Shown piece after piece: positions 33,861-64,000 of a stretch of DNA of 64,000 bases. Location: positions 186,001 through 250,000 of the forward strand of contig NZ_JAAAMG010000005.1 in NCBI RefSeq assembly GCF_010500815.1, written 5' to 3'. The first letter of the stretch is position 1, and each line of letters begins with the position of its first letter. Source of the stretch: Jiella pacifica. GTDB lineage: Bacteria > Pseudomonadota > Alphaproteobacteria > Rhizobiales > Rhizobiaceae. A program made the translations under genes and the position numbers. The notes beneath the pieces were generated by a model. That model was given only the letters and a program-made list of their open reading frames with translations. It had not been told where the DNA came from and did no database searches.

Positions 33861-33865
33861 GACCT

Positions 33866-35873: not shown

Positions 35874-35883
35874 AAGCTCTCCC

Positions 35884-42411: not shown

Positions 42412-42618
42412 CGGAGCGACGCACCGAGCCGTCCCGGCGAGCCCATGCCGCCGTGCCCCCATCCGCCCCCGCGGCTGCCGCCCCCACCTCAGATCGCAGG
42501 ATATGCCGGCCTGGCGTGATCGGCCGACGGGCGATCCACCTAAGATCGGCCGCGGATCGGCCCCAGATGGAGGAACGAACGTTCGACGGGCTTTTCAGCT
42601 TGCGCATCCAATTTTGTT

Positions 42619-42635
42619 TGTTAACATGCCTAACA
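42619..42635. promoter_or_regulatory. Palindromic operator before the sugar ABC operon
   Basis: TGTTA (42619-42623) and TAACA (42631-42635) are perfect half-sites separated by seven bases in an A+T-rich patch, 59 bases before the binding-protein start. ROK repressors bind A+T-rich palindromes, so this is a natural candidate site for the adjacent ROK protein. Confidence 0.4.
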
Positions 42636-42694
42636 TAAGTCGCGCGGATCCTGCGGCTGAGAGTCTGGTGCAAGTCAAGCAAATGGAGAGCCTC

Positions 42695-43960: not shown

Positions 43961-44007
43961 GCGATGAAAGCGCGTCCGGCCCTGCGGCCGGACGCCTGCC
44001 CGGGGCA

Positions 44008-45770: not shown

Positions 45771-45788
45771 GGATCTACCGAGGCTCAG

Positions 45789-47878: not shown

Positions 47879-48876
47879 GCTATCGATCGACAGTCGCCCG
47901 CCAGACGGAATCCCTGGCCGACAGCCTCGCCGCGGCACGGGCCGAACTCGCAGGCATGGATCTCTCCGGCTTCGGCGCGGGCCTGACGGCGGTGACCGGC
48001 ATCGGGGCGAGCTTCGCTGCGGCGGTGGTCGCCGCGAGCGAGATGCAGCGGCGGGGCAGACGGGCGGTGGCGATCCGCGCGGTCGACATGGCCGAAGGTT
48101 ACGATCTCGCCGATTCCATCATCGCCCTGTCGCATCGCGGCCGCAGCGTCGAGACGGTCGAGGCGCTTCGCAAGCTGCCGGGCGCCGAAAGCCTGGCGAT
48201 CACCAACAGCGCGGAAAGCCCACTGGCAAAGGCGGCCAACCATCACGTGACGCAGGCCAACGGCGCCGATGCGACGCCGTCGAGCACCGGCTACACCGCG
48301 ACGCTGCTCGTCGCCGGCCTCGTTCTCGACGCGATCACCGGCGGCAAAGGCACCGACTGGGACGCCCTGCCCGGACAGTCCGCGGCGATCCTCGAGGCCG
48401 CCGATGCCAAGATGGACCGGCTCGGGCGATTGTTCGCCGATCGGCGCGCCATCGACTGCGTCGGCGCCGGCGCGGCGCTCGGAACCGCCGACGAAGCCTC
48501 GCTGCTCATCCGCGAGGCCTCACGCATCCCGGCCGCCGCCTACGACACCCGCCATTATCTGCACGGGCCGATGGAATCGATGGATGAGACGACGGGAGTC
48601 GTGATCTTCGGCAGCGGCCGCGAGGTCGAACTCGCCCGCCAGCTCGACGCCATCGGCTGCCCGGCGCTGCTGGTCACCTCGAAGAGCGGGATTGCCGACG
48701 GCAGGACGCTGACCGTCCTCGAGGTCCCACACGCTGAGGATCGCATCTTGCAGGCGATCTTCGACATCTTCGCACCGCAGCTCCTCGCGGCCACCCTGTC
48801 GGACGCCGCGGGACTGACGGACACGAAGTTCCGCTACAAGCAGAGCGACACGAAGATCCTCGATCCCGCGGCCTGA
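47875..48876 (+). CDS. SIS-domain sugar isomerase (AgaS/GlmS isomerase-like)
   Basis: A 333-residue protein of two SIS domains, like the isomerase half of GlmS. GIGASFAAAVVAASEMQRRG and LSHRGRSVETVEALRKLPGA bind the sugar phosphate; the second domain contains GAGAALGTADEASLLIREAS and YLHGPMES, the family's conserved segment. No glutaminase domain is attached, so it should deaminate or isomerise a hexosamine phosphate rather than synthesise one. It ends the operon. Confidence 0.87.
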   Translation: MSYRSTVARQTESLADSLAAARAELAGMDLSGFGAGLTAVTGIGASFAAAVVAASEMQRRGRRAVAIRAVDMAEGYDLADSIIALSHRGRSVETVEALRKLPGAESLAITNSAESPLAKAANHHVTQANGADATPSSTGYTATLLVAGLVLDAITGGKGTDWDALPGQSAAILEAADAKMDRLGRLFADRRAIDCVGAGAALGTADEASLLIREASRIPAAAYDTRHYLHGPMESMDETTGVVIFGSGREVELARQLDAIGCPALLVTSKSGIADGRTLTVLEVPHAEDRILQAIFDIFAPQLLAATLSDAAGLTDTKFRYKQSDTKILDPAA

Positions 48877-50825: not shown

Positions 50826-51224
50826 CTATTTCGTCGAGCTTTCCTTCTGCACCACTGACAAGCCATTGTCCTTCCAGCCCGAAAAGCCGTTCCGCATGCT
50901 CCGCGCGTCGAGACCCATTTCCAGGGCGGTCTTCGCGGCGAGCAGGGAGCGCCACCCCGACGCGCAGTAGAAGACGAAGGTCTTCGGTTCAGCGAAGACC
51001 GGCCTGTGATACGGGCTTTCCGGATCGATCCAGAACTCCAGCATGCCGCGCGGAGCGTGGAAGGCGCCCGGAATCATGCCTTCGCGCGTCAATTCACGGG
51101 GATCGCGGACATCCACCAGAACGATATTCTCGTCATCAAGCGCTGCCGCCGCCTCTTCAACCGTGATGGAGCAGACGACAGCATCCGCCTCGGCGAGGAG
51201 ATCCTTGTATCCCTTGCGGGCCAC
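50826..51224 (-). CDS. Rhodanese-like sulfurtransferase (last gene of catabolic operon)
   Basis: A single-domain rhodanese (132 residues) with active-site C87 in FYCASGWRS. NIVLVDVRDPRELTREGMIP and GAFHAPRGML are the conserved CH2A and substrate-loop motifs; NGFSGWKDNGL ends the domain. It starts two bases after the CMD-family gene. Sulfur transfer or thiol redox chemistry fits the neighbouring CxxC protein and molybdoenzyme, but the donor is unknown. Confidence 0.9.
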   Translation of the reverse strand: MARKGYKDLLAEADAVVCSITVEEAAAALDDENIVLVDVRDPRELTREGMIPGAFHAPRGMLEFWIDPESPYHRPVFAEPKTFVFYCASGWRSLLAAKTALEMGLDARSMRNGFSGWKDNGLSVVQKESSTK

Positions 51225-51226
51225 GA

Positions 51227-51796
51227 TCAGCGCCCCATCGCATAGAATTCGGGGTTGGGGCGCATGCTGGTCGCATTCGCCAGGCGGTTCGACATGCCGA
51301 AGAACGCCGAGATCGCGGCGATGTCCCAGACGTCGTCGTCGGTGAAGCCGTGGCTCTTCAGCGTCTCCATGTCCTCGTCCCCCACCTCGTAGGCGCGCTG
51401 GGAGACCTTAATGGCGAAGTCCAGCATCGCCTTCTGGCGCTCGCTGATGTCGGCCTTGCGGTAGTTGATCGCGACCTGGTCGGCGATCAGCGGATCCTTG
51501 GCTCGGATGCGCAGGATCGCGCCGTGGGCGACCACACAGTACTGGCACTGATTCACGTTGCTGGTGGCCACGACGATCATCTCGCGTTCCGCCTTGGTGA
51601 TCGGGCCGGGCTTGTCCATGAGCGCATCGTGATAGGCGAAGAAGGCACGGAATTCATCCGGCCGGTGGGCAAGCGTCAGGAAGACGTTGGGCACGAAGCC
51701 GGACTTCTCCTGCACGGCGAGGATACGGTCGCGAATGTCTTCCGGCAGGTCCTCGATCTTGGGCACAGGAAAGCGGCTGATCGGCTGGTCGGTCAT
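51227..51796 (-). CDS. Peroxidase-related protein, carboxymuconolactone decarboxylase/AhpD family
   Basis: An AhpD-fold protein (189 residues) with the redox pair C84/C87 and H91 in NQCQYCVVAHG, as in alkylhydroperoxidase-like enzymes. The N-terminal SRFPVPKIEDLPEDIRDRIL and C-terminal FFGMSNRLANATSMRPNPEF belong to the peroxidase-related subfamily. It begins 14 bases after the molybdoenzyme gene and ends two bases before the rhodanese. A thiol-dependent peroxide or redox-relay role is inferred. Confidence 0.88.
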   Translation of the reverse strand: MTDQPISRFPVPKIEDLPEDIRDRILAVQEKSGFVPNVFLTLAHRPDEFRAFFAYHDALMDKPGPITKAEREMIVVATSNVNQCQYCVVAHGAILRIRAKDPLIADQVAINYRKADISERQKAMLDFAIKVSQRAYEVGDEDMETLKSHGFTDDDVWDIAAISAFFGMSNRLANATSMRPNPEFYAMGR

Positions 51797-51810
51797 GATG
51801 GAGGCACTCC

Positions 51811-54123
51811 TTATTCCGCCGCGATCGCGGCGAGGTTCTTCCGATAGGCCTCGAACGCGTCGGGAGCCTCTCCCGCATAGGGCTCGACGTGAACGAGGCA
51901 GGTGTGGGCCGAGCAGCCCTGGCCGAACTCGGAGGTTCCGATGTCGAGGGTCAGGACGTTCGGATTGCCGGCGAGGTCGAGGCCGCTGTTGCCGCTCGGC
52001 GTAAACCACGCCCCGGTCGGCAGCACGACGACGCCGGGCCGCACGGTGTCGGCGACGGTCGCCGTCGCAAGACAGGCGCCGCGGTCGTTGTACAGGCGCA
52101 CCGTCTCTCCGTCCGCGATGGAAAGGCGCCTCGCGTCCTCTGCGTTGAGGCGCGCCTGCTCCCGGCCGCCCCGTTTCATGGCAAGGCTCGCCTCGCCGGT
52201 CTCGAGTTGGCTGTGCAGGCGCCCGGCCGGCTGGTGGGAAATCAGATGCAACCGCCCGCCCGCATCGTCCCGGCCGAGCCATTCGGCGGGCTCCATCCAC
52301 GCAGGATGGGCCGGACAGCCGGCATGGCCGAGACGCTCCAGCTTGTCGCTGCCGAGCACGATCCGGCCGCTCTCCGTGACGAGCGCGTTTCGCTCCGGGT
52401 GCTCTCGGAATTCGGCCAGATAGGTGTGCCCCGTCTTCACCGGGCAGCGCGCATAGCCCGCCTCCCAGAACGCGTCGAAGTCCGGCATCTCGAAGCCGAG
52501 GCGGCTGGCGGCATCTTCCCTGCTCGTCTCGTAGAGATGGCGCAGCCAGGCCATCTCGTCACGCCCCTCGGCGAAGGCCTCGCCCACGCCGAGCCTTTCG
52601 GCGATCCCGTTGAAGATGTCGAAATCCGAGCGCGCCTCGCCCAGCGGCTCGATCGCCCTCTTCATGGCGATGATGAAGTCGGAGCGCTTGTTTCCGGCAA
52701 GGTCGTTGCGCTCGATGGAGGTGGAGGCGGGAAGAACGATGTCGGCACGCTGGGCGGTCGCGGTGAACATCGGGTCCTGGACGATGATCGTTTCGGGCCG
52801 AGTCCAGGCCTCGGACAGGCGATTGATGTCCTGATGATGATGATAGGGGTTGCCGCCGGCCCAGTAGACCAGCCTGATATCCGGATAGGTCCGCTCCGCG
52901 CCCTCATAGGTGAAGGTCTTGCCGGGGTTGAGCAGCATGTCCGAGATGCGCGCCACCGGAATGAAGCTGTCGATGACCTTCGCAAAGGGAGAGATGGCCG
53001 GCGAGCGGCCGAGATTGATCGGCGCGCCGACGCCGCCGAGCGAAGCGTAGCCATAGCCGACGCCGCCCCCCGGCAGGCCGATCTGGCCGACGATCGATGC
53101 CAGGCCCAGCGCCGCCCAGAAGGGCTGTTCGCCGTGATGGGCACGCTGCAGGCTCCAGCTCACCGTCAGCATGCTGCGCGTGGCGACGAGCGTATTTGCA
53201 AGCTCAGCGATCCCGGCCGCGTCGAGGCCGGTGATCGTGGCGGCCCAGGCCGCATCCTTGCGGACACCGTCCTCGTGGCCGTCGAGATAGGCGATCAGTC
53301 GCTCGGAGCCGCTGGTGCAACGTGCAAGAAAGTCGCGCGCCTCGCGGCCGTTCTTCAAGATCTCGCCGGCCAGCCCCAGCATCAGCGCCGTGTCGGTGTT
53401 CGGGCGGATCGGCCACCATTCGGCATTCAGCCATTCGGGGACGTCGTCCTTCAACGGCGAGACCAGGACGACCCGAACGCCGCGATCGGCGATCTGTCTG
53501 AGATAGGTTTCCAGCGAATGGGTGGCGATGCCGCCGGCCTCGCTCTGCGCCGTGCGCGGCGACAGCGCCCCGAAGACGACCAGCGTTTCGGTGTGTTCGG
53601 CAATCGTATCGAGCGTGTTGGCCTGTCCGCCGCAGGCGCCTTCGTCGCCGAGCGTATGGCGCAGGATCACAGGGCCGGCGGCGATCGAGTAGGTGTCGAC
53701 GTGACGGGTGAAGCCGCCGACGAGATTGAGCATGCGCTTCAGAAGCGTCGAGGCGTGGTGGAAGCGGCCGCAACTTGTCCAGCCATAGGATCCGGCGAAG
53801 ATCGACGCATTGCCATGGCTGCCCGCGACCCGCGTGATCTCCTCAGCGACGAGGCGTGTCGCCTCGCCCCAGCTCACCGGCACGAATTTCTCCTTGCCGC
53901 GGCCGCGCCGATCGCTCTTCTCGCGCTTTTCCAGCCAGCCTTCGCGCACCATCGGACGAAGGACGCGCCGATCGGATTTCGCCCACTCCGCGACGGAGTG
54001 AATGATCGGCGACGGCGCCGGATCATGCTCGAAGGGTTCGACGCCGACGATCGCCCCGTTCTCGACGAGGATCGTATAGGCGCCCCAATGGCTGCAATGC
54101 GGAATGCGTTCGACAGTACCCAT
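51811..54123 (-). CDS. Molybdopterin oxidoreductase, BisC/DMSO reductase family
   Basis: A bis-molybdopterin enzyme (770 residues). The likely molybdenum ligand is S117 in GSYGWTSCGRFHHA, as in DMSO, TMAO and biotin-sulfoxide reductases. GGNPYHHHQDINRL, IVLPASTSIERNDLAGNKRS and the C-terminal GNPNVLTLDIGTSEFGQGCS match the family. There is no Tat signal and no N-terminal Fe-S cysteine motif, so it should be cytoplasmic like BisC. Known relatives reduce S- or N-oxides. Lying inside a sugar-acid-like catabolic operon is unusual. It begins 19 bases after the ThDP gene. Confidence 0.9.
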   Translation of the reverse strand: MGTVERIPHCSHWGAYTILVENGAIVGVEPFEHDPAPSPIIHSVAEWAKSDRRVLRPMVREGWLEKREKSDRRGRGKEKFVPVSWGEATRLVAEEITRVAGSHGNASIFAGSYGWTSCGRFHHASTLLKRMLNLVGGFTRHVDTYSIAAGPVILRHTLGDEGACGGQANTLDTIAEHTETLVVFGALSPRTAQSEAGGIATHSLETYLRQIADRGVRVVLVSPLKDDVPEWLNAEWWPIRPNTDTALMLGLAGEILKNGREARDFLARCTSGSERLIAYLDGHEDGVRKDAAWAATITGLDAAGIAELANTLVATRSMLTVSWSLQRAHHGEQPFWAALGLASIVGQIGLPGGGVGYGYASLGGVGAPINLGRSPAISPFAKVIDSFIPVARISDMLLNPGKTFTYEGAERTYPDIRLVYWAGGNPYHHHQDINRLSEAWTRPETIIVQDPMFTATAQRADIVLPASTSIERNDLAGNKRSDFIIAMKRAIEPLGEARSDFDIFNGIAERLGVGEAFAEGRDEMAWLRHLYETSREDAASRLGFEMPDFDAFWEAGYARCPVKTGHTYLAEFREHPERNALVTESGRIVLGSDKLERLGHAGCPAHPAWMEPAEWLGRDDAGGRLHLISHQPAGRLHSQLETGEASLAMKRGGREQARLNAEDARRLSIADGETVRLYNDRGACLATATVADTVRPGVVVLPTGAWFTPSGNSGLDLAGNPNVLTLDIGTSEFGQGCSAHTCLVHVEPYAGEAPDAFEAYRKNLAAIAAE

Positions 54124-54142
54124 CGTTCTTCTTTCAAGCCGC

Positions 54143-55693
54143 TCAGATCACCGCTTCGATCAGGAAGGGGCCCTTTCGCCGGCACGCTGCGGAAAGAAGC
54201 GTCTCGAAACCCTCCGCCGTGTCGGCGCGTGCGGCCTCCACCCCCATGCCACCCGCGATCTTCACCCAGTCGAGTTCCGGATTGTCGAGGTCCAGCATGC
54301 GCCGAGCGTTCTCGCCGGGCGCACCGGCGCCGACATTTTCCAGCTCCTTGTGCAGGATCTGATAGCGGCGATTGGCATAGACGATCGTCACCACGTCCAG
54401 CGCCTCGCGGGCCTGGGTCCAGAGCGCCTGAACCGTATACATGCCGCTGCCGTCGGCCTGAAGACCGATCACCTTGCGGCCCGGACAGGCGACGGCCGCC
54501 CCCGTCGTCAGCGGCAGGCCGATCCCGATGGCGCCGCCGGTGAGCTGCAGGAAGTCGTGGGGCTCGGCACCATGGGTGCTGCGGAAGAAGTCGCGGCCCG
54601 ACGAGACCGACTCGTCGCAGACGATCGCATCGGCAGGCATGTGGTGGGCAAGCGCGATCGCCATCGCCTCGGGCGTCAGCCGCCCGGACAACAGGGGGGG
54701 CCGGTACCGCTCGGCGAGACGGGGGGCCGCCACGTGGCCGATCCCGACCGCCTCGGCCAGGGCCTCGATCGCCGCGACGACGTCGCCGCCCTCTTCGATC
54801 AGTTCGAGGACCGCACAATCCTCCGGCAGCATGGAACTCGGCTTGCCCGGATAGGCGAAGAAGCCGACTGGAGCCTTCGCGCCGATGAGGATAACCTGCT
54901 CGGTGTCGCGGAAGGTGGCGAGCGCCTGGTCGATGACATAGGGCACCCGGTCGAGCGCCGGGCGCCCTGCGCCGCGCTGCATGCGGCCATTGGCCTGCTG
55001 AGCCATCAGCCGCGCGCCGGTCGCATTGGCAAGACGGTCGAGAAGTTTCAGCTGCCGCTCGCGCAGGGCGAGGCCGGAGACGAGGATGGTCGTCTGCCGA
55101 CCGGCCCGCAGCGCCCTTGCCGCCGTGTCGACACGCGCTCCGTCGGGCGCCGTGGGCGCCAGTCGCGGAGCCCGTTTCGCGACGGCCCGATCGGTCGAAT
55201 TCCAGGCCGCGTCGGCGTGGAGGATCAGCGTCGCGATCTGGCCTGGTTGCCGCGTCGCAGCCGTGATTGCCTCCTCCGCCCGCTGTCCGACGAGATCCGC
55301 GCGCTCGGCCCGGCCGAGCCAGTGCGACACCGGTCGCGCCAGGGACTCGATGTCGGAGGTCAGGGGGGCGTCATAGGCAAGGTGATGGGTCGCATGGTCG
55401 CCCACCACGTTGACCATCGGCGTGTGGGCGCGGCGGGCATTGTGCAGATTGGCGATGCCGTTGGCGAGGCCCGGACCGAGATGGAGAAGCGTCGCCGCCG
55501 GCTTGTCTGCCATGCGCGCATAACCGTCCGCCGCGCCGGTCACCACGCCCTCGAACAGGCCGAGGACGCAGCGCATCTTCGGCTGCCGGTCGAGGGCGGC
55601 GACGAAATGCATCTCCGACGTGCCGGGATTGGCGAAGCAGACGTCGATGTCGTTGGCGAGCAGCGTCTCGCAGAGAAGATCGGCGCCGTTCAT
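54143..55693 (-). CDS. ThDP-dependent enzyme, acetolactate synthase large-subunit-like
   Basis: A thiamine-diphosphate enzyme of 516 residues with the three-domain pyruvate-oxidase layout. E49 in LGLFEGVVTGAADGYARM is the catalytic glutamate, and ADGSGMYTVQALWTQA through IVYANRRYQI is the ThDP/magnesium motif. It is shorter than true acetolactate synthase, and no regulatory subunit is near. A 2-oxoacid decarboxylase or ligase is as likely. The ATG overlaps the FGGY-kinase stop (ATGA), with AAGGAG upstream. Confidence 0.86.
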   Translation of the reverse strand: MNGADLLCETLLANDIDVCFANPGTSEMHFVAALDRQPKMRCVLGLFEGVVTGAADGYARMADKPAATLLHLGPGLANGIANLHNARRAHTPMVNVVGDHATHHLAYDAPLTSDIESLARPVSHWLGRAERADLVGQRAEEAITAATRQPGQIATLILHADAAWNSTDRAVAKRAPRLAPTAPDGARVDTAARALRAGRQTTILVSGLALRERQLKLLDRLANATGARLMAQQANGRMQRGAGRPALDRVPYVIDQALATFRDTEQVILIGAKAPVGFFAYPGKPSSMLPEDCAVLELIEEGGDVVAAIEALAEAVGIGHVAAPRLAERYRPPLLSGRLTPEAMAIALAHHMPADAIVCDESVSSGRDFFRSTHGAEPHDFLQLTGGAIGIGLPLTTGAAVACPGRKVIGLQADGSGMYTVQALWTQAREALDVVTIVYANRRYQILHKELENVGAGAPGENARRMLDLDNPELDWVKIAGGMGVEAARADTAEGFETLLSAACRRKGPFLIEAVI

Positions 55694-57198
55694 GCGCAAG
55701 GCTCCTTCATCACGGCCTGCCGGCGCAATGCCGAGAAGGCTTCCCAGTTCGGCGCCACGGCATCGAGGAGGCGGACGAACAGATCGTATTTCGCCATGGC
55801 GTAGTCGCGGACGGGGCCCGTGCCCGGCTCGATGGCCTCGTCCGGCGGGCCGATCCAGCTGGCAATCTCTGCGTCCGAGGCACCCAGGAGAAATTTCGCG
55901 CCGATCGTGCCGAGCCCGCGCAGACTCGCATGTCCCGTCGTCGTCCGCTCGACCTTCGCGCCGAGAAGCGTCGCGAGGAAGCTCGCAAACGTCGCGTCGC
56001 CGGCAAGGCCGCCGCCGAGCGACAGCGCACCGGCGGGGGCGTTCATCATGTCGTGGCTCTTGCGGGCGACGAAGGCCAGCGCCTCGCGCGCCGCCCAGGC
56101 GATCTCCTCTGGCCGGGTCTGCGCGGTCAGGCCGAAGATCGCGCCGGTCGCATGCGGCGTCGTCACGGGCGCGCGTTCGCCGCCGGGCTCGAAGAACGGG
56201 TGCAGGATCAGGTCGGAATAATGCGGCGCGCTCCGCTCCGGCACACCCGCCATCAACCTGCCGAGATGGGACATCAGCGTCGCGCCGTTGAAGCTCGGGT
56301 GAAAGCAGAGATAGCCCTCGCCGAGGGCGAATTGCTGCACCATCGCTCCGGCGGGTTCGGTGGGGACCACACCGGCGTCGGTGATGTGGCAGGCATGGAT
56401 GGCGCTGGTGCCGAAGATCGAGGCGCGGCTGACACCTGGACGCGTTCCGAGGCCGAGCCCGATCAGCGTCGTCTGGACGTCGCCTGGACCAAGGAGAACG
56501 GGAATGTCCCGTCCCGCGATGCCGATCTCGGCTGCGGCCTCGCCCGAGAGGAATGCCGTGCAGGCGTCGATCGGCGCGAGTTCGGGCAACAGGGCGATGC
56601 CCTTGTTTAGGCCGATCGCCACCTCGACGAGGCGCGACGTCGCGCCGGTGCGCCAATTACCCCATACCGGCAGAACGGCGCTCGGTTCCGCCATCGCCTT
56701 GCCGGTCAGGCCGAGGAACAGCCACTCCTTCAGGCGCAAGGCGAAGCGGATCTTGGCGAAGCGCTCCGGCTCGTTGCGGCTGAGCCAGAAAAGCTGCAGG
56801 CTCTGCGAGGCGGAGGTCGGGCGCGAACCGGTGAGCAGGCGGATTTCATCCAGAGCGCCCTGCTCCGCCAGATCCCCCGCCAGCGCGCGGCAGCGGCCGT
56901 CGAGCCAGGTCATCGCCTGGCCGACGGGTTCGAGATCCTCGCCCACCGGCCAAAGCCCGTCGCCCTGCCCGGTGACGACGATGCCCGCGACCGGGCCGGA
57001 CAGTTGGCTCGCGCAGTCCCTCAGGACGGCAAACCCGTCTTGGCGGGACATGCCCATGTCCTGTTCGACCCGCTCGGCGCTCCGCCTGAGCGCACGGTTC
57101 GGCCGCTCCGCGGCCGCGAGCAGACGCCCGGAACCGTCAAAGGCTGCAGCCTTGACAGCCGTCGTGCCGGAATCGAGACAGAGCAGGACCGGGTTCAT
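55690..57198 (-). CDS. FGGY-family carbohydrate kinase
   Basis: A sugar or polyol kinase (502 residues). CLDSGTTAVKAAAFDGSGR is the N-terminal phosphate loop, VTGQGDGLWPV and MTWLDGRC (likely catalytic aspartate) the substrate site, and GALSLGGGLAGDATFASFLA the C-terminal adenosine motif. The closest family feel is erythritol/xylulose kinases, but the substrate is not deducible. It follows the class II aldolase by five bases, so kinase and aldolase probably act in sequence on one intermediate. Confidence 0.88.
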   Translation of the reverse strand: MNPVLLCLDSGTTAVKAAAFDGSGRLLAAAERPNRALRRSAERVEQDMGMSRQDGFAVLRDCASQLSGPVAGIVVTGQGDGLWPVGEDLEPVGQAMTWLDGRCRALAGDLAEQGALDEIRLLTGSRPTSASQSLQLFWLSRNEPERFAKIRFALRLKEWLFLGLTGKAMAEPSAVLPVWGNWRTGATSRLVEVAIGLNKGIALLPELAPIDACTAFLSGEAAAEIGIAGRDIPVLLGPGDVQTTLIGLGLGTRPGVSRASIFGTSAIHACHITDAGVVPTEPAGAMVQQFALGEGYLCFHPSFNGATLMSHLGRLMAGVPERSAPHYSDLILHPFFEPGGERAPVTTPHATGAIFGLTAQTRPEEIAWAAREALAFVARKSHDMMNAPAGALSLGGGLAGDATFASFLATLLGAKVERTTTGHASLRGLGTIGAKFLLGASDAEIASWIGPPDEAIEPGTGPVRDYAMAKYDLFVRLLDAVAPNWEAFSALRRQAVMKEPCA

Positions 57199-57203
57199 CG
57201 GCT

Positions 57204-57881
57204 TCAGGACGCCTGACGATAGCCTTCGACGACCTTCGGACTCTGCTGCCCGTAGGTCTTGAACTTCACCAGCACCTCGGCGATCTGCTCTTCGCTGAGG
57301 ACCGGCGGCTCGCCGGTCGGCAGGCAGAGAAGATACTGGCTGGCAAGCTCCTCGACAGTGACGGCCAAAGCGAGCGCCCGGGCGATGGAGACATGGGCCG
57401 CGATCACGCCGTGATGGGCGAGCAGGCAGGCGCGCGAGCCTTCCAGCGCCTCGATGGCGCGATCGGCGAGCTCCTGGGAGCCGAAGATCTCGTAAGGCGC
57501 GCAGCGGATCCTGGACGCCCCGGTGGCGGCGATCGCGTAATGGATGGCCGGAATGTCCTTTTCGAGGATCGAGACCGCCGTCGCCTTGGTCGAATGGGTG
57601 TGGACGATGGCGTTGAGATCCGGCCTCGCCTGAAGAATGTCCCGATGGAAGCGCCATTCGCTCGACGGCAGCACGTCGCCCTCGAAGGTCGCGTCCCAGC
57701 GCATCGCCACCACGTGCTCCGGTGTCAGCTTGTCGTAGGGAACGCCCGTCGGCGAGATCAGGAGACCCTCGCCATGGCGCACGCTGACATTGCCGGCCGT
57801 GCCCTTATTGATGCCGAGCCGGCTCATGTTCTGGCAGGCTTCGACCAGTTCCGTGCGCAGCTTCAGTTCGTCGTCCATCAT
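57204..57881 (-). CDS. Class II aldolase/adducin family protein
   Basis: A zinc-dependent fuculose-phosphate-aldolase-type enzyme (225 residues). GINKGTAGNVSVRHGEGLLI is the phosphate-binding segment, SSEWRFHRDIL carries the catalytic glutamate, and the zinc histidines are in IVHTHSTKA and LLAHHGVIA. It would cleave a ketose or acid phosphate. ATG at 57881 is chosen; a GTG at 57890 overlaps the dehydrogenase stop. It sits between the dehydrogenase and the kinase genes. Confidence 0.9.
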   Translation of the reverse strand: MMDDELKLRTELVEACQNMSRLGINKGTAGNVSVRHGEGLLISPTGVPYDKLTPEHVVAMRWDATFEGDVLPSSEWRFHRDILQARPDLNAIVHTHSTKATAVSILEKDIPAIHYAIAATGASRIRCAPYEIFGSQELADRAIEALEGSRACLLAHHGVIAAHVSIARALALAVTVEELASQYLLCLPTGEPPVLSEEQIAEVLVKFKTYGQQSPKVVEGYRQAS

Positions 57882-57886
57882 CGATC

Positions 57887-58933
57887 TCACTTCGTCGGAT
57901 AGAGGGGGGAGCGGCCTTCCAGGAGACGGCCGATATCCTCGGCGATCATTTCGGCGGCCTTATGGGCGGAATAGCGCGACGCGCCGGCGATATGCGGCGA
58001 CAGCGTCACGTTGGGCAGCTTGAGAAGCGGCAGGTCCGCCGGCGGAGGCTCGGGATCGAAGGTGTCGAGGGCCGCGCCCTTCAGATGCCCCGACACGAGC
58101 GCGTCGAAGAGCGCCTGATAGTCGAGCACCTGCCCGCGCGTCGTGTTGATGATGTAGGCGCCAGGCTTCATCATCGCGATCTGGGCTCGCCCGATCATGC
58201 CGCGGGTCTCCGGCGTGACGCGGGGATGGAGGGTGACGACGTCGCTCTGGCGCAGGAGATCGTCGAAGGGAACCTTCTCGATTCCCATCGCGCGGTCCGC
58301 CTCCGTCAGCTTCTTGAACGGATCGGCGACCAGGATGCGCGCGCCGAAGGCGTGGAGGAGCCGTGCGACGCGGGTGCCGATATCGCCATAGCCGACGATG
58401 CCGACGGTCATTTCACAGAGCTCCGGCCCGGTCTGGTCGTAATGGAAGAATTCGCGGCCGAACCCACCGCCGGCGACGTTCAGATGCCCGCGGACGAGAT
58501 TGCGGGTTTCGGCGAGGATCGAGGCGATGGTGAATTCGGCGACGGCCGAGGCGTTTCGTCCCGGCGTGTTGATCACGGTGACCCCCCGCTCGCGCGCCGC
58601 CGGCATCTCGACGTTCACCGGCCCGCCGCGCGAGACGGCGATGATCTTCAGCTTCGGCGCATGGGCAAGGCTCTCGGCGGTGATCGGCGCCAGATGGGTG
58701 ATCAGGATGTCGAGATCGGCGAGGAAGTCGAAATACTCCTCCGGCCGCCCCAGAAACTCCGCCACCGGCAGGCTTGGGTCCTTCTTGGTCGTCTGCAGTC
58801 TCAACGGCCAGTCCGGCATCATGCTCTGGTAGCGAACCGGCCGCTCGCCGAGACGCCTGCGCAGCGCCGCCTCGAACAGCTGCGGCTGCATGAAGCCGTC
58901 GCCGATCGTTCCGATGGTGATCGTCTCGGTCAC
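57887..58933 (-). CDS. D-isomer-specific 2-hydroxyacid dehydrogenase
   Basis: An NAD(P)-dependent dehydrogenase (348 residues). GIVGYGDIGTRVARLLHAFG is the nucleotide-binding motif. The catalytic arginine, glutamate and histidine lie in INTTRGQVLDY, LDTFDPEPPP and SPHIAGASRYS. The only family-like start is GTG at 58933, with AAGGGG just upstream. It would interconvert a 2-hydroxyacid and a 2-oxoacid, possibly feeding the ThDP enzyme. Confidence 0.9.
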   Translation of the reverse strand: MTETITIGTIGDGFMQPQLFEAALRRRLGERPVRYQSMMPDWPLRLQTTKKDPSLPVAEFLGRPEEYFDFLADLDILITHLAPITAESLAHAPKLKIIAVSRGGPVNVEMPAARERGVTVINTPGRNASAVAEFTIASILAETRNLVRGHLNVAGGGFGREFFHYDQTGPELCEMTVGIVGYGDIGTRVARLLHAFGARILVADPFKKLTEADRAMGIEKVPFDDLLRQSDVVTLHPRVTPETRGMIGRAQIAMMKPGAYIINTTRGQVLDYQALFDALVSGHLKGAALDTFDPEPPPADLPLLKLPNVTLSPHIAGASRYSAHKAAEMIAEDIGRLLEGRSPLYPTK

Positions 58934-58946
58934 GTCGCGCCCCCCT

Positions 58947-60152
58947 TCAGGCGGTCTTGGTCTTGACGGAAGGCGCCGCTTCGAGCCCCGGCAACACGTC
59001 CTGATAGTCCGCGCCGGCAACGCCGATGCCGGCCAGGATGTCGGCGGTGTGCTCGGCGAAGGCCGGCGGCTTCATGCGATAGCTCGCCGGCGTCCGCGAC
59101 AGTTTGATCGGGCTTCCCGTGCCGCGATAATTGCCGATGTCGACGATCATGCCCCGATGATGCGTATGCGGGTCGGCGACCACCTGGTCGATGGAGCGGA
59201 CCGCACCACAGGGGACACCGGACTTGATCAGGCGTTCCGCCAGGACTTCGCAGTCATGCTCCGCCAGCGCCTCCTCCAGTAAGGCCTTCAGCGCGTCGCG
59301 GTTGACGTTGCGGGTGCCGTTGGAGGCAAAGCGGGGATCCTCGGCAAGCTCCGGCCGGCCGATCGTCCGGCAAAGCTGCGCGAACTGGCGATTGTTGCCG
59401 ACCGCGAGGAAGATCGGCTCCGTCCCCGTCGCAAAGGTATCGTAAGGGCAGATGTTCGGGTGTGCGTTGCCGGAGGGCTTGGCCGGCACCTCGTTCAGAT
59501 AGTAGTTCGGCAGATGCGGGTGGAGGAGCGAAACCCCGCAGTCGTAGAGCGTCGTCTCGACGAACTGACCCTTGCCGCTCTCTCCGCGTTCGGCCAGCGC
59601 CATCAGGATCCCGATGACGGCGTTCAGCCCCGTCACCATGTCGACGACCGGCAGCCCGACCCGCAGGGGCTGGCCGCCCTTTTCGCCGTTGACGCTCATG
59701 ATGCCGCAGGTTGCCTGGACGGCCGCGTCGTAGCCCGGCAAGCCGCCGAGCGGCCCGTCGGCGCCGAAGCCGGAGACCCGGCAGTGGATCAAACGCGGAA
59801 AGCGCGTCTCCAGTTCTTCCGGGCCGAGGCCCCATTTCTCCAACGTGCCGGTCTTGAAGTTCTCGATGAAGACATCGGCGTCTTCGAGAAGCCGCAGGAG
59901 GAGCTCGCGCCCGGCGGGCTGGGAGAGATCCAGCGCCATGCCGCGCTTGTTGCGGTTGAGCCCCAGGAAATAGCTCGCGGCGTCATCCAAAAATGGCGGC
60001 CCCCAGCCCCGCGTCTCGTCGCCCGTCGGCGGCTCGACCTTGATGACGTCCGCGCCGTGGTCGGCGAGAACCTGGCCGGCATAAGGCCCGCCGAGCACGC
60101 GGCTGGCGTCGATGACCTTCAGATGAGACAGTGAACCGCGATCGGTCGTCAT
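58947..60152 (-). CDS. CaiB/BaiF-family (class III) CoA transferase
   Basis: A formyl-CoA-transferase-like enzyme (401 residues) that moves CoA between carboxylic acids. VIDASRVLGGPYAGQVLADH and GADVIKVEPPTGDETRGWGP are the N-terminal signature, SYFLGLNRNKRGMALDL the CoA-binding region, and GLPGYDAAVQATCGIMSVNG the active-site region. It lies between the two-subunit CoA transferase and the dehydrogenase with 12-13 base gaps. The acid it activates is unknown. Confidence 0.92.
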   Translation of the reverse strand: MTTDRGSLSHLKVIDASRVLGGPYAGQVLADHGADVIKVEPPTGDETRGWGPPFLDDAASYFLGLNRNKRGMALDLSQPAGRELLLRLLEDADVFIENFKTGTLEKWGLGPEELETRFPRLIHCRVSGFGADGPLGGLPGYDAAVQATCGIMSVNGEKGGQPLRVGLPVVDMVTGLNAVIGILMALAERGESGKGQFVETTLYDCGVSLLHPHLPNYYLNEVPAKPSGNAHPNICPYDTFATGTEPIFLAVGNNRQFAQLCRTIGRPELAEDPRFASNGTRNVNRDALKALLEEALAEHDCEVLAERLIKSGVPCGAVRSIDQVVADPHTHHRGMIVDIGNYRGTGSPIKLSRTPASYRMKPPAFAEHTADILAGIGVAGADYQDVLPGLEAAPSVKTKTA

Positions 60153-60164
60153 GAGCACTCGCTT

Positions 60165-60932
60165 CTATGCCGCGCTGGCGCAGCCATCGATTTCCCGGCG
60201 AAGCTCAGCGGCGAAGCCGGGATAGGTTTCGTGGAGTTCGTCGAGAACGCGGCCGCGAAGAAGCGCCAACGTTTCCTCGTTCGGGGCTGGCGTGAAGGGT
60301 GGCCGCTCGTCGTGTTCGAAGGCGAATCCGGTCGCCGCCTTGATCTCGCGTAGATCATGGGCCGGATGGATGCTTTCGAGTCGGAAGCCGGGACGGCTTC
60401 GATCGAAGGAGAACAGCCCCTTGCTGGTGACGAGGGCCGCGGGGCCGCCTTCGCGCCAGACGCCCGGTTCGCTGACGCCGGGGGCGCTGATAAAGTCGAC
60501 CTTCTCGACGAACACCCGGGGCGTATGCTCCTCGCGGAACAGGATGACGCGGGGCACGGCGAAATAGAGATAGGCGGAGCCGAAGGAACCGGGCCAGCGC
60601 ACCTTCGTCGCCGGATAGTCGCCAACGCCGACCAGATTGACGTTGCCGCGACCGTCGATCTGGCCGCCGCCAAGAAAGAAGGCGTCGATCCGCCCCTGCC
60701 CCGCGCAGTCGAAGAGTTCCGCCGAACCATTGGTGAAGAAATTGTGTTCGACCGAACCGAGGATCGAAAGACGCACTCTCTCGGCCTTCGCCTCTTGCTT
60801 CAGGGCGCGCAGCAGCATGGCGCCGGCCGCCGGGATCGGCGAAGCCGCACCGACGGCGACGTGGCGCACGCCGTCGAGCAGCCGCGCTATGGCGGTGATC
60901 AGGATCTCGCGGGAGGTTGCAGGTCCGCTCAT
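60165..60932 (-). CDS. CoA-transferase subunit B (GctB/IpdB-like)
   Basis: The beta subunit of a class I CoA transferase or related CoA-thioester hydrolase (255 residues). LSILGSVEHNFFTNGSAELF, GRIDAFFLGGGQIDGRGNVN and VRWPGSFGSAYLYFAVPRVI match the GctB/IpdB group. I could not locate the catalytic glutamate of true transferases with certainty, so an IpdAB-like ring-cleaving hydrolase is an alternative. Its ATG overlaps the subunit A stop (ATGA). Confidence 0.82.
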   Translation of the reverse strand: MSGPATSREILITAIARLLDGVRHVAVGAASPIPAAGAMLLRALKQEAKAERVRLSILGSVEHNFFTNGSAELFDCAGQGRIDAFFLGGGQIDGRGNVNLVGVGDYPATKVRWPGSFGSAYLYFAVPRVILFREEHTPRVFVEKVDFISAPGVSEPGVWREGGPAALVTSKGLFSFDRSRPGFRLESIHPAHDLREIKAATGFAFEHDERPPFTPAPNEETLALLRGRVLDELHETYPGFAAELRREIDGCASAA

Positions 60933-61738
60933 CGCGCGGCCTCCCGCAGATCGCCGCTCATGTAGTCGGCAAAGCCTTCGGCCGAACGCGCGGCCGCGGC
61001 GTAGCGTTTCAGCTCCGCGGTATCGGTCTCGTACTCGCCCCATAGCCCATAGGGCCAGGCGCCCCGCTCGGCGACCGCGACATCGCTGACGTAAATGCCC
61101 GGCAGCGTCCCTGCGGCCGTGGTCTCGTCGGCGAGCAGGCTGCGTTCGACGATCCGCTCCACGGTGACGAGGGTCGTCCGGGACGCATAGGCCATGGCCG
61201 CCAGCTCGCGGCGGCGGCCGATCCAGACGTTGCCGTCACGGTCGGCCATCGGCGCATGGAAGATCGCGACGTCGGGATGGATCGCCGGCACGAGGACGAT
61301 CGGATCGCCCGCCGCTTCGAAGGGATTGTCGATCACCCGCCAGTCGCCCCGGTTGGCAAGGACGTCGGTGCCGATCAGCCCCCGGATGGGAACGAAGGGG
61401 ACACCCTTCTGGCTGGCAAGAAGCCCTGCATGAATGGCCGGACAGGTGGCGTCGCAAATCTCGATCCTTGCGGATTTGACCGCATCGTTGAAGCGCGGCG
61501 CGCCGCCGGCCTCGCCGAGCGAAACGGCACTCGTCTCGACGCGAGCGACGAGGCCCGCTCCGATCAGCATGTCCACCTGCAGACCACCCGTCGGCACGCA
61601 CACCAGATGCAGGCGATCGGCGCCATGCTCGATCAGCGGCCGGGTCATCGCCATGGAAACGCCGGCATAATCCACCGGCAGTGCGATGCACATGCCCGGC
61701 TGGACCGCCTCCGCCATTCGTCTCAGATCAGAACCCAC
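60929..61738 (-). CDS. CoA-transferase subunit A (GctA/IpdA-like), first gene of operon
   Basis: The alpha subunit (269 residues). CIALPVDYAGVSMAMTRPLI, HGADRLHLVCVPTGGLQVDM, IGAGLVARVETSAVSLGEAG and HPDVAIFHAPMADRDGNVWI are family segments. The start is the GTG at 61738, with GGGAGG five bases upstream; in-frame ATGs further out lie beyond the predicted transcription start. It heads a ten-gene minus-strand operon and diverges from a PotA-type transporter gene. Confidence 0.84.
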   Translation of the reverse strand: MGSDLRRMAEAVQPGMCIALPVDYAGVSMAMTRPLIEHGADRLHLVCVPTGGLQVDMLIGAGLVARVETSAVSLGEAGGAPRFNDAVKSARIEICDATCPAIHAGLLASQKGVPFVPIRGLIGTDVLANRGDWRVIDNPFEAAGDPIVLVPAIHPDVAIFHAPMADRDGNVWIGRRRELAAMAYASRTTLVTVERIVERSLLADETTAAGTLPGIYVSDVAVAERGAWPYGLWGEYETDTAELKRYAAAARSAEGFADYMSGDLREAAR

Positions 61739-61796: not shown

Positions 61797-61809
61797 GTTC
61801 TAAATGAAC
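61797..61809. promoter_or_regulatory. Operator-like palindrome 2 (GTTC-N5-GAAC)
   Basis: GTTC (61797-61800) and GAAC (61806-61809) with a five-base spacer overlap the -10 end and start point of the minus-operon promoter. It shares half-sites with the two longer palindromes. Confidence 0.5.
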
Positions 61810-61837
61810 TATATTCTTTGTTCGAGGCCCCTGTCAA
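61808..61837 (-). promoter_or_regulatory. Promoter of the ten-gene catabolic operon
   Basis: On the minus strand TTGACA (61837-61832) and TATAGT (61813-61808) are separated by 18 bases, a near-consensus sigma-70 promoter. Transcription would start near 61801 and meet two GTTC...GAAC palindromes before the GTG at 61738. Confidence 0.65.
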
Positions 61838-61979
61838 ACGCGCCTCTCCGGAGGACTCATGAGGATGCTGGAGCGCGTCAAAGCTCTGTTTTTGTTGGAT
61901 CATTCCTGAACGCCGGTGCCGGGTCCACCGGCCGCTTGACAAACGGCTTTACTCGGGAAAATATGAATTCTGGAAAGCT

Positions 61980-61996
61980 GTTCTATATTATGGAAC
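61980..61996. promoter_or_regulatory. Operator-like palindrome 3 (GTTC-N9-GAAC)
   Basis: GTTC (61980-61983) and GAAC (61993-61996) flank TATATTATG, close in sequence to palindrome 1. It lies just upstream of the transporter ATPase start (62017) and downstream of a TTGACA at 61936-61941, so one repressor could control both divergent operons. Confidence 0.6.
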
Positions 61997-62016
61997 AGAC
62001 CCGGAAGGAACATGAG

Positions 62017-63168
62017 ATGGAAGATTCGGCTCGCGCGCCGCAGGGTTGGGCGGACGCCTCGGCACCCGCTCGACCGGCGGCTTCCAGTCCCGCCAATCAG
62101 ACGATCGGCAGCAGCGTCGACGTCAGGAGTGTGACCAAGTACTACGGGCATTTTCGTGCCGCGGACGATATCAGCCTGAGCGTCAGCCCGGGCGAGTTCA
62201 TCACCCTCCTCGGACCGAGCGGCAGTGGCAAGACCACGCTTCTGAATCTCGTCGCCGGCTTCCAGAAAATCGATGCGGGAGAAATCCTCGTCGACGGCAA
62301 GCCCATCCATCACGTGCCGACCCACAAGCGCGGCTTCGGCATGGTGTTCCAGGGCTACGCCCTTTTCCCCAACATGACGGTCACGCAGAACGTCGCCTTT
62401 CCGCTGCGCATGGCAGGCGTCGATCGGCAGACCGCGGAGCGACGGGTCGCCGAGACGCTCGAGATCATGCGCATGTCGGACCACGCGCACAAGGCGCCCT
62501 CACAGATGAGCGGCGGCCAGCAGCAGCGCGTCGCGATCGCCCGCGCGATCGTCATGCGCCCCAAGGTCGTCCTGATGGACGAGCCGTTGAGTGCTCTCGA
62601 CCGGCGCCTGCGGGAATCGATCCAGATCGAGATCCGTGATCTCCATCAGACCCTCGGCTCGACGATCCTCTTCGTCACCCATGACCAGGGCGAAGCGCTG
62701 ACCATGAGCGACCGGATCGCGGTGCTGAATGCCGGGCATATCGTCCAGGTCGGAACGCCCGTGGAAATCTATCGCCATCCGGTCGATCGTTTCGTCGCCT
62801 CCTTCGTCGGCGAGAGCAATCTGATCGAGGCGGAGGTGATGCAGAAGCGCGGGGACATGATGACGCTGCGCAACCGCGCCGGCTACACGTTCAGCGCCCG
62901 AAGCCGAAACGCGATCGACGTCGGCAAGGCGACGGTTCTGGTGCGCCCCGAGCGGATCACGATTTCGAACGAGGCCGGGAAGAACTCCATCCCGGTCACG
63001 GTGACGTCCGCACTGTTTCTCGGCGAGATCCTGCGTATCGAGGCCGAGATGGAAGGTGGGGAAAAGCTCCTGATCCGCTGTTCGGACAGCGCGCATCGCG
63101 GACTGCCTGCGATCGGCGGGACGCTCCACGCCAGCTGGGGCGCCGACGACTGCTGGATGCTGTCATGA
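62017..63168 (+). CDS. ABC transporter ATP-binding protein, PotA family
   Basis: The ATPase of a spermidine/putrescine-type importer (383 residues). Walker A GPSGSGKTT, Q-loop VFQGYALFPNMT, signature MSGGQQQRVAIARAI, Walker B VVLMDEPLSALD and switch VTHDQGEALTMSDR are intact, followed by a TOBE domain (TVLVRPERITI). The ATG at 62017 has AAGGAA about nine bases upstream; an in-frame ATG at 61990 would lie inside palindrome 3. It overlaps the permease gene by four bases. PotABCD-type systems import polyamines but also many organic acids. Confidence 0.92.
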   Translation: MEDSARAPQGWADASAPARPAASSPANQTIGSSVDVRSVTKYYGHFRAADDISLSVSPGEFITLLGPSGSGKTTLLNLVAGFQKIDAGEILVDGKPIHHVPTHKRGFGMVFQGYALFPNMTVTQNVAFPLRMAGVDRQTAERRVAETLEIMRMSDHAHKAPSQMSGGQQQRVAIARAIVMRPKVVLMDEPLSALDRRLRESIQIEIRDLHQTLGSTILFVTHDQGEALTMSDRIAVLNAGHIVQVGTPVEIYRHPVDRFVASFVGESNLIEAEVMQKRGDMMTLRNRAGYTFSARSRNAIDVGKATVLVRPERITISNEAGKNSIPVTVTSALFLGEILRIEAEMEGGEKLLIRCSDSAHRGLPAIGGTLHASWGADDCWMLS

Positions 63169-64000
63169 GCGCCCCGGCCCTCGACTTGCCCGCCGCCGGC
63201 TCGCGTGCGGTGCCGTTCTCGCAGCGATTGCGCAATCCGATCTGGCTGCTCGCGCCGGCGGTCATCTTCCTCAGCTTCATCTACCTCGTCCCGCTGATCG
63301 ACCTGATCCGCATCAGCTTCAACGGCTCGACACCCTGGATCCATTTCGAGCGGGTATTCTCGCTGCCGCTCTACTGGGATTCTCTCGTCAGGACGATGGG
63401 GATCTCGGTCACCGTCGCCATCCTTTGCTGTATCTTCGGCTATCCGACGGCCCTGATGATCCATCGCACGCGTGGCTGGGTCCAGGTCTTCGTCGCGACC
63501 ACCATCATCCTTCCCTATTTCATCGCGATCCTGATCCGCACCTACTCATGGATGGTGCTTCTCGGCCGCAACGGGCCGATCAACAAGCTCGCCGTCGCCC
63601 TCGGCATTTTCGACGAGCCGATGCAGCTCCTGTTCAATCGCGGCGCCGTGCTGCTCGGCATGACGGCCGTGCTTCTGCCGATCATGGTGCTGTCGATCTA
63701 TTCGAGTGTCGCCCGCCTCGACAGCGGGCTGACGCGTGCGGCCGCGGCGAGCGGCGCAGGGCCGATCGCCACCTTCTGGCGGGTCCTCCTGCCGCTCACC
63801 CTGCCGGGGGCAGGCGCCGGCTTTCTCCTGGTCTTCGTCATGGGCCTCGGCTTCTTCATCACGCCGACGCTGCTTGGCGGGCCGGGCGACCAGATGTTCG
63901 CCATGCACATCACCCAGCAGGCGAACTTCGTCACCAGCGAAGGCTTCCTGCAGGCTCTCGGCGTCGTCCTCCTGGTGATCACCCTCGTCGTGGTCGGTGT
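63165..64000 (+). CDS. ABC transporter permease, PotB family (partial)
   Basis: The N-terminal 278 codons of a PotB-type permease; the gene runs off the window. The first helix is in NPIWLLAPAVIFLSFIYLVP, and the EAA-type loop AAAASGAGPIATFWRVLLPL contacts the ATPase. Helices continue to the edge. The ATG overlaps the ATPase stop (ATGA). A second permease and binding protein are expected beyond 64000. Confidence 0.92.
   Translation, partial: MSAPALDLPAAGSRAVPFSQRLRNPIWLLAPAVIFLSFIYLVPLIDLIRISFNGSTPWIHFERVFSLPLYWDSLVRTMGISVTVAILCCIFGYPTALMIHRTRGWVQVFVATTIILPYFIAILIRTYSWMVLLGRNGPINKLAVALGIFDEPMQLLFNRGAVLLGMTAVLLPIMVLSIYSSVARLDSGLTRAAAASGAGPIATFWRVLLPLTLPGAGAGFLLVFVMGLGFFITPTLLGGPGDQMFAMHITQQANFVTSEGFLQALGVVLLVITLVVVG

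What the first reader, a model, noticed from the sequence alone, without database searches (positions are those of the whole stretch)
50826..61738. Ten-gene catabolic operon with an unusual enzyme mix (candidate undescribed pathway)
Seen: ten co-directional genes with gaps of -4 to 19 bases encode GctA/B-like CoA transferase, CaiB-type CoA transferase, 2-hydroxyacid dehydrogenase, class II aldolase, FGGY kinase, ThDP enzyme, BisC-family molybdoenzyme, CxxC AhpD-like protein and rhodanese. Known: kinase plus class II aldolase usually cleaves a phosphorylated ketose; CoA transferases activate acids; BisC relatives reduce S- or N-oxides. Inference: one imported compound is phosphorylated and split, one fragment being a hydroxy/oxo acid activated to CoA, another possibly sulfur-containing (molybdoenzyme, rhodanese, CxxC protein). 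I know no described pathway with this set.
Basis: partly seen in the sequence, partly recalled or inferred. Interest (0 to 1): 0.85.

Follow-up and report, generated by a model that had tools for sequence, protein, structure and literature searches.

The report
Conserved ten-gene operon, pathway unknown
Ten neighbouring genes, kept together in several soil and sea bacteria with their own importer and probable switch, look like one pathway, which I could not find described, that imports an unknown compound, adds phosphate, splits it and feeds the pieces into central metabolism.

Summary
The ten-gene operon is real at 50826-61738 (minus strand, gaps -4 to 19). The same ten genes in the same order lie in 12 other fetched loci, back to back with one polyamine/opine-type ABC transporter and, where the stretch reaches it, iclR. 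A palindrome (GTTCYATANTATRGAAC) occurs twice in 17 of 18 divergent promoter regions, so this is probably one regulon. In three relatives the FGGY kinase and 2-hydroxyacid dehydrogenase are replaced by a PfkB kinase and an SDR, while transporter, IclR, a FucA-type aldolase, GctAB, BisC-like and AhpD-like genes remain; this supports an oxidise-phosphorylate-cleave core giving DHAP plus an aldehyde. One correction: the 'GctA/B CoA transferase' lacks the catalytic glutamate. An invariant cysteine (Cys99, A subunit) aligns with catalytic Glu105 of IpdA, so the pair probably cleaves or decarboxylates a CoA ester, and CaiB is the likely transferase. Substrate and BisC reaction remain unknown; sulfur chemistry is possible, not shown. 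My searches of open-licence papers found no described pathway with this set. Confidence in the outline of the mechanism is 0.5.

The parts
60929..61738 (-). GctA-like subunit (gene 1), 269 aa; invariant Cys99 where IpdA has catalytic Glu105
60165..60932 (-). GctB-like subunit (gene 2), 255 aa; Ile57 where CoA transferases have the catalytic Glu
   Evidence: passages of PMC5380842
58947..60152 (-). CaiB/family III CoA-transferase (gene 3), nearest NCBIfam model succinate--glutarate CoA-transferase (below cut-off)
57887..58933 (-). D-2-hydroxyacid dehydrogenase (gene 4)
57204..57881 (-). FucA-like class II aldolase (gene 5), 262.5 bits against a cut-off of 264 for PRK08087
55690..57198 (-). FGGY kinase (gene 6), fastest-evolving member (mean 60% to 14 orthologues)
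54143..55693 (-). ThDP enzyme of family PRK07586 (gene 7), probable 2-oxoacid decarboxylase
51811..54123 (-). BisC-like molybdoenzyme of the DMSO reductase group (gene 8), probably cytosolic
51227..51796 (-). AhpD-like CxxC protein TIGR01926 (gene 9)
50826..51224 (-). single-domain rhodanese (gene 10); not in L018, L071, L073, L074, L021 or L092
61777..61793 (.). operator-like palindrome 1, before gene 1 (3 mismatches to GTTCTATANTATAGAAC)
61980..61996 (.). operator-like palindrome 2, before the transporter (1 mismatch)
61804..63168 (+). ABC transporter ATPase (PotA-like); the family match begins near residue 100, so the real start is probably near 62100
63165..63998 (+). ABC transporter permease, runs past the window end; binding protein (L011:1988-3079), iclR (about L011:3290-4046) and an aldehyde dehydrogenase (ending L011:5533) follow on contig C45

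Best explanation
The ten genes, the divergent ABC transporter and IclR form one catabolic regulon, often with an SSADH-like aldehyde dehydrogenase beside it. Shown by sequence: conserved gene content and order, shared operator-like sites, and replacement of kinase plus dehydrogenase by unrelated equivalents. Inferred mechanism: a polyol-carboxylate (sugar-acid-like or opine-like) compound is imported and brought to the ketone level (2-hydroxyacid dehydrogenase or the GlcD-like FAD enzyme here, SDR in the variants). FGGY (or PfkB) phosphorylates it. The FucA-type aldolase cleaves it to DHAP and an aldehyde fragment. That fragment passes through 2-oxoacid decarboxylation (ThDP) and/or aldehyde oxidation to an acid, is loaded with CoA by CaiB, and its CoA ester is cleaved or decarboxylated by the GctAB-like pair, which is not a classical CoA transferase. 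The BisC-like enzyme reduces an S- or N-oxide (or related oxo group) on the substrate or the acid fragment, perhaps with dithiol help from the AhpD-like protein.
For: All ten genes in order in 12 further loci. Transporter proteins 64-93% and IclR 72-94% identical to those of P. methylovorus in the V1 and V2 loci where they were seen. Two operator-like sites in 17 of 18 divergent regions and one in the other; mononucleotide shuffles of the same regions give two sites in 0.005 of 18 on average, though the pattern was read from these regions. In the window 2 sites where dinucleotide-preserving shuffles expect 0.01. PfkB+SDR replacement in L071, L073 and L074 with a FucA-type aldolase, GctAB, BisC-like, AhpD-like, transporter and IclR kept. 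Distance matrices of nine genes over 13 loci correlate at 0.56-0.92, fitting co-inheritance, though plain vertical descent would also give this. The acid half (GctAB, CaiB, AhpD-like, with BisC-like or ThDP) occurs alone with TRAP transporters in L021 and L092. Binding protein in the opine/polyamine/GABA group.
Against: Substrate unknown. Three V1 enzymes (2-hydroxyacid dehydrogenase, ThDP, rhodanese) have no counterpart in the V2 stretches, so their steps cannot be universal. L073 and L074 have no CaiB nearby; the best in those genomes is 53-54%. The aldehyde dehydrogenase is beside iclR in 7 of the 15 loci where that side is visible (own genome, L088-L091, L093, L027) and not in 8 (L014-L018, L071, L073, L074). 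Genome-wide at up to 3 mismatches the operator pattern has 3 places, but the control pattern read backwards has 7, so weak sites alone mean nothing. L071 has its transporter at the far end of the operon and one site. FucA-like and BisC-like proteins fall short of their curated cut-offs. Sub-blocks also occur alone. A BisC copy 67% identical stands without the other genes in Haematobacter. No transcript, enzyme or growth data were seen.
Confidence: 0.5

Rival explanations
1. The substrate has no sulfur. It is a plain sugar acid or opine-type polyol-acid. The BisC-like enzyme does another oxo-transfer (N-oxide, N-hydroxyl or an unknown dehydroxylation), and the fragment is a C3-C5 hydroxy- or dicarboxylic acid fed to CaiB.
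For: CaiB nearest to succinate--glutarate and oxalate transferases. SSADH-like aldehyde dehydrogenase in several loci and AcuI-like genes near the cluster in the own genome and L096. V2 kinase of L073 nearest to 5-dehydro-2-deoxygluconokinase, with an SDR of gluconate-5-dehydrogenase/rhamnose-dehydrogenase type, all below cut-off. Opine-binding relatives of the binding protein.
Against: Leaves the conserved BisC-like gene without a clear role.
Confidence: 0.4
2. The substrate carries a methylthio/sulfoxide group. The kinase/aldolase half works like the DHAP shunt for 5-methylthioribose, giving DHAP plus a sulfur-containing aldehyde that ALDH, CaiB and the GctAB-like pair process; the BisC-like enzyme reduces sulfoxide forms; rhodanese and AhpD-like protein handle released sulfur.
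For: BisC-like gene in all V1 loci whose stretch reaches it and in the three V2 loci. Rhodanese and CxxC protein in the operon. FucA enzymes can take 5-deoxy- and methylthio-ribulose 1-phosphate (recalled).
Against: None of the ten is an MtnA/MtnK- or DmdD-type protein. Rhodanese is absent from L018 and from the variants. Close AhpD-like proteins occur in unrelated contexts. 2-hydroxyacid dehydrogenase and ThDP are not explained.
Confidence: 0.18
3. An aromatic acid pathway: 2-hydroxyacid dehydrogenase, benzoylformate-decarboxylase-like ThDP enzyme, ALDH and CaiB shorten an aromatic side chain; the kinase and aldolase act on an attached polyol.
For: ThDP enzyme nearest to benzoylformate decarboxylases in the PDB. 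A polyamine-family (COG0687) binding protein of R. palustris, RPA4648, bound p-coumarate (passages of PMC3223731), and 3rpw, the closest solved relative of this binding protein, is from R. palustris; whether they are one protein was not established.
Against: V2 stretches lack HADH and ThDP but keep the transporter. No ring-cleaving gene among the ten. PRK07586-type enzymes occur in many other plasmid records.
Confidence: 0.1
4. Chance assembly of unrelated genes under one promoter.
For: Sub-blocks occur alone elsewhere.
Against: Full order kept in named Hyphomicrobiales and Rhodobacterales with paired operator-like sites.
Confidence: 0.03

Closest known systems
L-fucose-type pathway (FGGY fuculokinase + FucA aldolase)
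   Same: FGGY kinase beside a FucA-type aldolase; DHAP plus an aldehyde expected
   Different: No isomerase among the ten; kinase matches xylulokinase models best and no fuculokinase model at E <= 0.001; aldolase below both FucA cut-offs; seven further enzymes
Inositol pathway IolC/IolJ (5-dehydro-2-deoxygluconokinase + aldolase)
   Same: V2 loci carry a PfkB kinase (nearest IolC in L073) plus an SDR and an aldolase; cleavage of a keto-acid phosphate to DHAP plus a semialdehyde is the model chemistry (recalled)
   Different: Aldolase is of the FucA type; V1 uses an unrelated kinase
IpdAB (COCHEA-CoA hydrolase of steroid catabolism)
   Different: Catalytic Glu105 of IpdA aligns with an invariant Cys here; 24% identity
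AibAB (3-methylglutaconyl-CoA decarboxylase)
   Different: Its B-subunit cysteine aligns with Ile57 here
BisC / DMSO reductase
   Same: Full-length match, 1014.2 bits to bisC_fam
   Different: Just under the 1017.55 cut-off; apart from a lone 67% copy in Haematobacter and a 60% copy in THAF37, the plasmid relatives listed (60 of 191) are 46-50% identical; substrate unknown
FGGY + 2-hydroxyacid dehydrogenase + class II aldolase triads (Shinella, Sinorhizobium, Gemmobacter, Paracoccus seriniphilus)
   Same: Homologous dehydrogenase (about 50-57%) and the same three enzyme types together
   Different: Kinase much further apart; other transporters; no CoA, ThDP or BisC-like genes beside them

Membership tests
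Family I (glutaconate-type) CoA transferase | CoA-transferase I fold | tested here: met
Family I (glutaconate-type) CoA transferase | Catalytic Glu in the B subunit (Glu54 of GCT) | tested here: not met
   Position read as Ile57 through alignment to AibB; I or V in 29 and L in 1 of the 30 sequences aligned; the 1poi_B alignment itself does not cover the position; role of Glu54 from passages of PMC5380842
IpdAB hydrolase | Catalytic Glu105 in the A subunit | tested here: not met
   Aligned residue is Cys99, in 30 of 30; 6coj is titled E105A
IpdAB hydrolase | C-C hydrolysis of a CoA ester | not testable with these tools
   needs enzyme assay
AibAB decarboxylase | Active-site Cys in the B subunit | tested here: not met
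   Ile57 at that column; that this Cys is catalytic is recalled
CaiB/family III CoA transferase | Full-length CoA_transf_3 with the catalytic Asp | tested here: met
   residues 8-369 over profile 1-366; Asp in VVDMVTG in the six loci printed; role of Asp recalled
L-fuculose-phosphate aldolase (TIGR01086) | Curated equivalog score 400.25 | tested here: not met
   253.6 bits
BisC family (TIGR00509) | Curated subfamily score 1017.55 | tested here: not met
   1014.2 bits, 3 bits short over the full length
BisC family (TIGR00509) | S- or N-oxide reduction | not testable with these tools
   SYGW and TYS motifs in 20 of 20 aligned; their roles in DMSO reductase are recalled
FGGY kinase | FGGY_N and FGGY_C domains | tested here: met
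   106.3 and 45.5 bits; no equivalog cut-off reached
PRK07586 ThDP enzyme | Curated score 363 | tested here: met
   769.5 bits; the family's reaction is not established here

The most novel reading that the evidence does not exclude
An undescribed alphaproteobacterial pathway with a new kind of step: a GctAB-type pair that uses an invariant A-subunit cysteine, in place of glutamate, to cleave (thiolase- or hydrolase-like) or decarboxylate a CoA ester made from the aldehyde fragment of a phosphorylated, oxo-group-bearing polyol-acid that the BisC-like enzyme reduces first.
Probability: 0.35. Interest if true: 0.75.

Novelty: new variant of a known kind. Interest (0 to 1): 0.58.

Why it matters
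The regulon occurs in Paracoccus denitrificans PD1222 and has a clear operator-like motif, so its substrate can be sought by direct tests. It marks a GctAB-like protein group (33 of 199 genomes of the order, own genome included, have a GctA match at E <= 1e-50; 9 of 341 of the order of G452 at E <= 1e-60) as probably misannotated CoA transferases, and offers a context in which to find what they and this BisC-like branch do.

Tried and rejected
Rejected or left open. Oxalate degradation (CaiB plus ThDP): the ThDP enzyme's best models are PRK07586/PRK12474 and no oxalyl-CoA decarboxylase is among the 25 shown of 50. 3-deoxy-octulosonate as substrate: judged against only by recalled stereochemistry of FucA. 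A specific BisC-AhpD partnership: AhpD-like proteins 62-79% identical lie in six unrelated contexts viewed (from the list), and AhpD-like sits with GctAB without a BisC-like gene in the stretches L075 and L092. Neighbours of more distant GctAB pairs gave no single theme. Literature searches found no matching pathway and nothing relevant for 3RPW; RPA4648 was in one paper only. The binding-protein model was poor (pLDDT 54.3); I used its match list only for entry titles and near relatives, beside the sequence search. Mechanical gene calling on fetched loci mis-called frames in GC-rich stretches; I relied mainly on tblastn matches. Of the 35 places, 17 were newly fetched and three (window, L009, L010) were already held; 15 were not examined. 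Of the 9 places all were fetched: six are V1, L092 is partial, L094 and L095 show GctAB alone among the cluster genes. Of 12 kinase records, six were viewed.
Full report
Observation. Ten co-directional minus-strand genes lie at 50826-61738 with gaps of -4 to 19 bases, exactly as described, and Pfam confirms each class named. Only the AhpD-like protein (TIGR01926) and the ThDP enzyme (PRK07586) reach a curated NCBIfam cut-off; the FucA-like aldolase (262.5 against 264) and the BisC-like protein (1014.2 against 1017.55) fall just short; the kinase, 2-hydroxyacid dehydrogenase, CaiB, both GctAB subunits and rhodanese reach none.

The unit is conserved. That makes 12 loci besides the window; in L089 and L091 the rhodanese is cut by the stretch end. 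L018 (Sagittula) has nine and no rhodanese; L093 and L088 are cut by the stretch or contig end. I call these V1. The kinase is rare: 4 of 199 genomes of the order at E <= 1e-40, own genome included, one of the four (G172) being a different cluster; 2 of 398 of the phylum at E <= 1e-60, own genome included. Mean identity of the window proteins to 14 V1 orthologues (13 for AhpD-like, 10 for rhodanese) is 67-84%, but only 60% for the FGGY kinase. Pairwise distances of nine genes over 13 loci correlate at 0.56-0.92; this fits a block that travels together, though plain vertical descent would also give it.

The regulon is larger than the operon. In the V1 loci an ABC ATPase, permease and binding protein are transcribed divergently, followed by iclR where the stretch reaches it. 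An SSADH-like aldehyde dehydrogenase lies next to iclR in the own genome, L088-L091, L093 and L027, but not in L014-L018, L071, L073 or L074 (7 of 15 loci where that side is visible); L008 has one on the other side. An acyl-CoA synthetase follows in L008, L014, L015, L017 and L096; FAD-binding (GlcD-like where scanned) oxidoreductases lie nearby in L009, L010, L016-L018, L073, L096 and the own genome. The palindrome GTTCYATANTATRGAAC lies twice in the divergent region of 17 of 18 loci (15 V1 neighbours, the window, L073, L074) and once in L016, at up to 4 mismatches; mononucleotide-shuffled regions give two sites in 0.005 of 18 on average. The pattern was read from these regions, so the count is partly circular. 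The outer GTTC and GAAC are invariant in all 35 sites. In the window there are two sites where dinucleotide-preserving shuffles expect 0.01. In the whole genome at up to 3 mismatches there is one further place, without the GTTC arm; the control pattern read backwards has 7 places, so three-mismatch sites alone mean nothing genome-wide. IclR (nearest models BhcR and PcaR, below cut-off) probably controls this divergon; that it binds these sites is inferred.

Variants show what is replaceable. L071 keeps transporter (at the far end of the operon, not divergent), IclR, GctA, GctB, CaiB, FucA, BisC-like and AhpD-like genes and one exact palindrome before GctA, but has a PfkB-family kinase and an SDR instead of FGGY, 2-hydroxyacid dehydrogenase and ThDP. 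L073 and L074 keep the divergent transporter, IclR, GctA, GctB, BisC-like and AhpD-like genes with another FucA-type aldolase, a PfkB kinase (in L073 nearest to 5-dehydro-2-deoxygluconokinase, 124.8 bits, cut-off 300) and an SDR. Whole-genome searches show that the best-scoring relatives of the window's 2-hydroxyacid dehydrogenase in G019 and G194 are 36% identical; G143 has one at 53% elsewhere. Kinase and dehydrogenase have thus been swapped for unrelated proteins of the same type next to an aldolase, which is hard to explain unless oxidation, phosphorylation and aldol cleavage of one compound are the core. The acid-processing half exists alone: Sulfitobacter THAF37 has GctAB-CaiB and BisC-AhpD-like genes with a TRAP transporter and one operator-like site; L092 has GctAB-CaiB-ThDP-AhpD-like with a TAXI TRAP transporter; Diaphorobacter has GctAB-CaiB. 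The sugar-type half exists alone as FGGY + 2-hydroxyacid dehydrogenase + class II aldolase beside sugar ABC transporters or sulfatases. A BisC copy 67% identical stands in Haematobacter without the other cluster genes, near malate synthase and glycolate oxidase genes.

Substrate. The binding protein was searched with the P. methylovorus orthologue (own-genome copy 78-82% identical). Its closest solved relative is 3rpw from Rhodopseudomonas palustris CGA009 (E 1.8e-185), then proteins solved with opines (agropinic, mannopinic and glucopinic acid), GABA and polyamines. Opines combine a polyol with a carboxylate, which suits a kinase-aldolase pathway joined to acid activation. A COG0687 binding protein of R. 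palustris, RPA4648, bound p-coumarate (passages of PMC3223731); I could not establish whether it is the 3rpw protein. The BisC-like enzyme keeps the SYGW and TYS motifs in 20 of 20 aligned sequences; their link to S-oxide reduction in DMSO reductase is recalled. I therefore leave the sulfur reading open.

Literature. Searches for combinations of these enzymes found no matching pathway; the library holds open-licence papers only, so a description elsewhere cannot be excluded.

Verdict. I rate it a new variant of a known kind (a kinase-aldolase catabolic regulon) with an unusual CoA-ester half.

Noticed in passing
L019:13965-15083 and L021:4713-16782 (Sulfitobacter sp. THAF37 plasmids d and b): A shortened FGGY kinase copy (48% over two thirds of the query) lies beside IS6 and an integrase on one plasmid, while the GctAB-CaiB and BisC-AhpD-like parts lie on another plasmid that also carries IS6: the cluster may have been broken up.
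   Followed up: partly
L027:14001-19006 (Pseudorhodobacter turbinis): Apparently decayed cluster: GctA, GctB, CaiB and FucA present, ThDP only 275 aa, kinase, dehydrogenase and BisC-like gene not found in the stretch.
   Followed up: partly
L018:20173-27634, L024:9970-17005 and L031:10946-18371: A second cluster (GntR, HpcH/HpaI aldolase, FAD-binding oxidoreductase, TRAP, SDR, ICL/PEP mutase) follows the operon in Sagittula and also follows the FGGY-dehydrogenase-aldolase triad in two Shinella records, hinting at linked metabolism.
   Followed up: no
L029 and L030: Sinorhizobium pSymB and Gemmobacter clusters join the FGGY-dehydrogenase-aldolase triad to a GlpD-like dehydrogenase and a second class II aldolase; substrate not known to me.
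   Followed up: no
L020:13965-25154 (Diaphorobacter sp. HDW4B): A GctAB-CaiB set lies about 5-6 kb from a cysteine dioxygenase, a 3-sulfinopropanoyl-CoA desulfinase and a second CaiB gene.
   Followed up: no
L028:12001-14277 (Haematobacter massiliensis): A BisC-like gene 67% identical to the window's, unannotated in the record table, stands alone near iclR, malate synthase G and glycolate oxidase genes.
   Followed up: no
window 32818-38961: RND efflux genes 81% identical to a plasmid of Aureimonas sp. AU20, the best-covered plasmid record for window 24000-48900; suggests an Aureimonas-like host.
   Followed up: no
window 42335-48876: Sugar ABC transporter genes with a weakly NagK-like kinase and a SIS/GlmS-like protein: a separate, perhaps amino-sugar-type cluster.
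   Followed up: no
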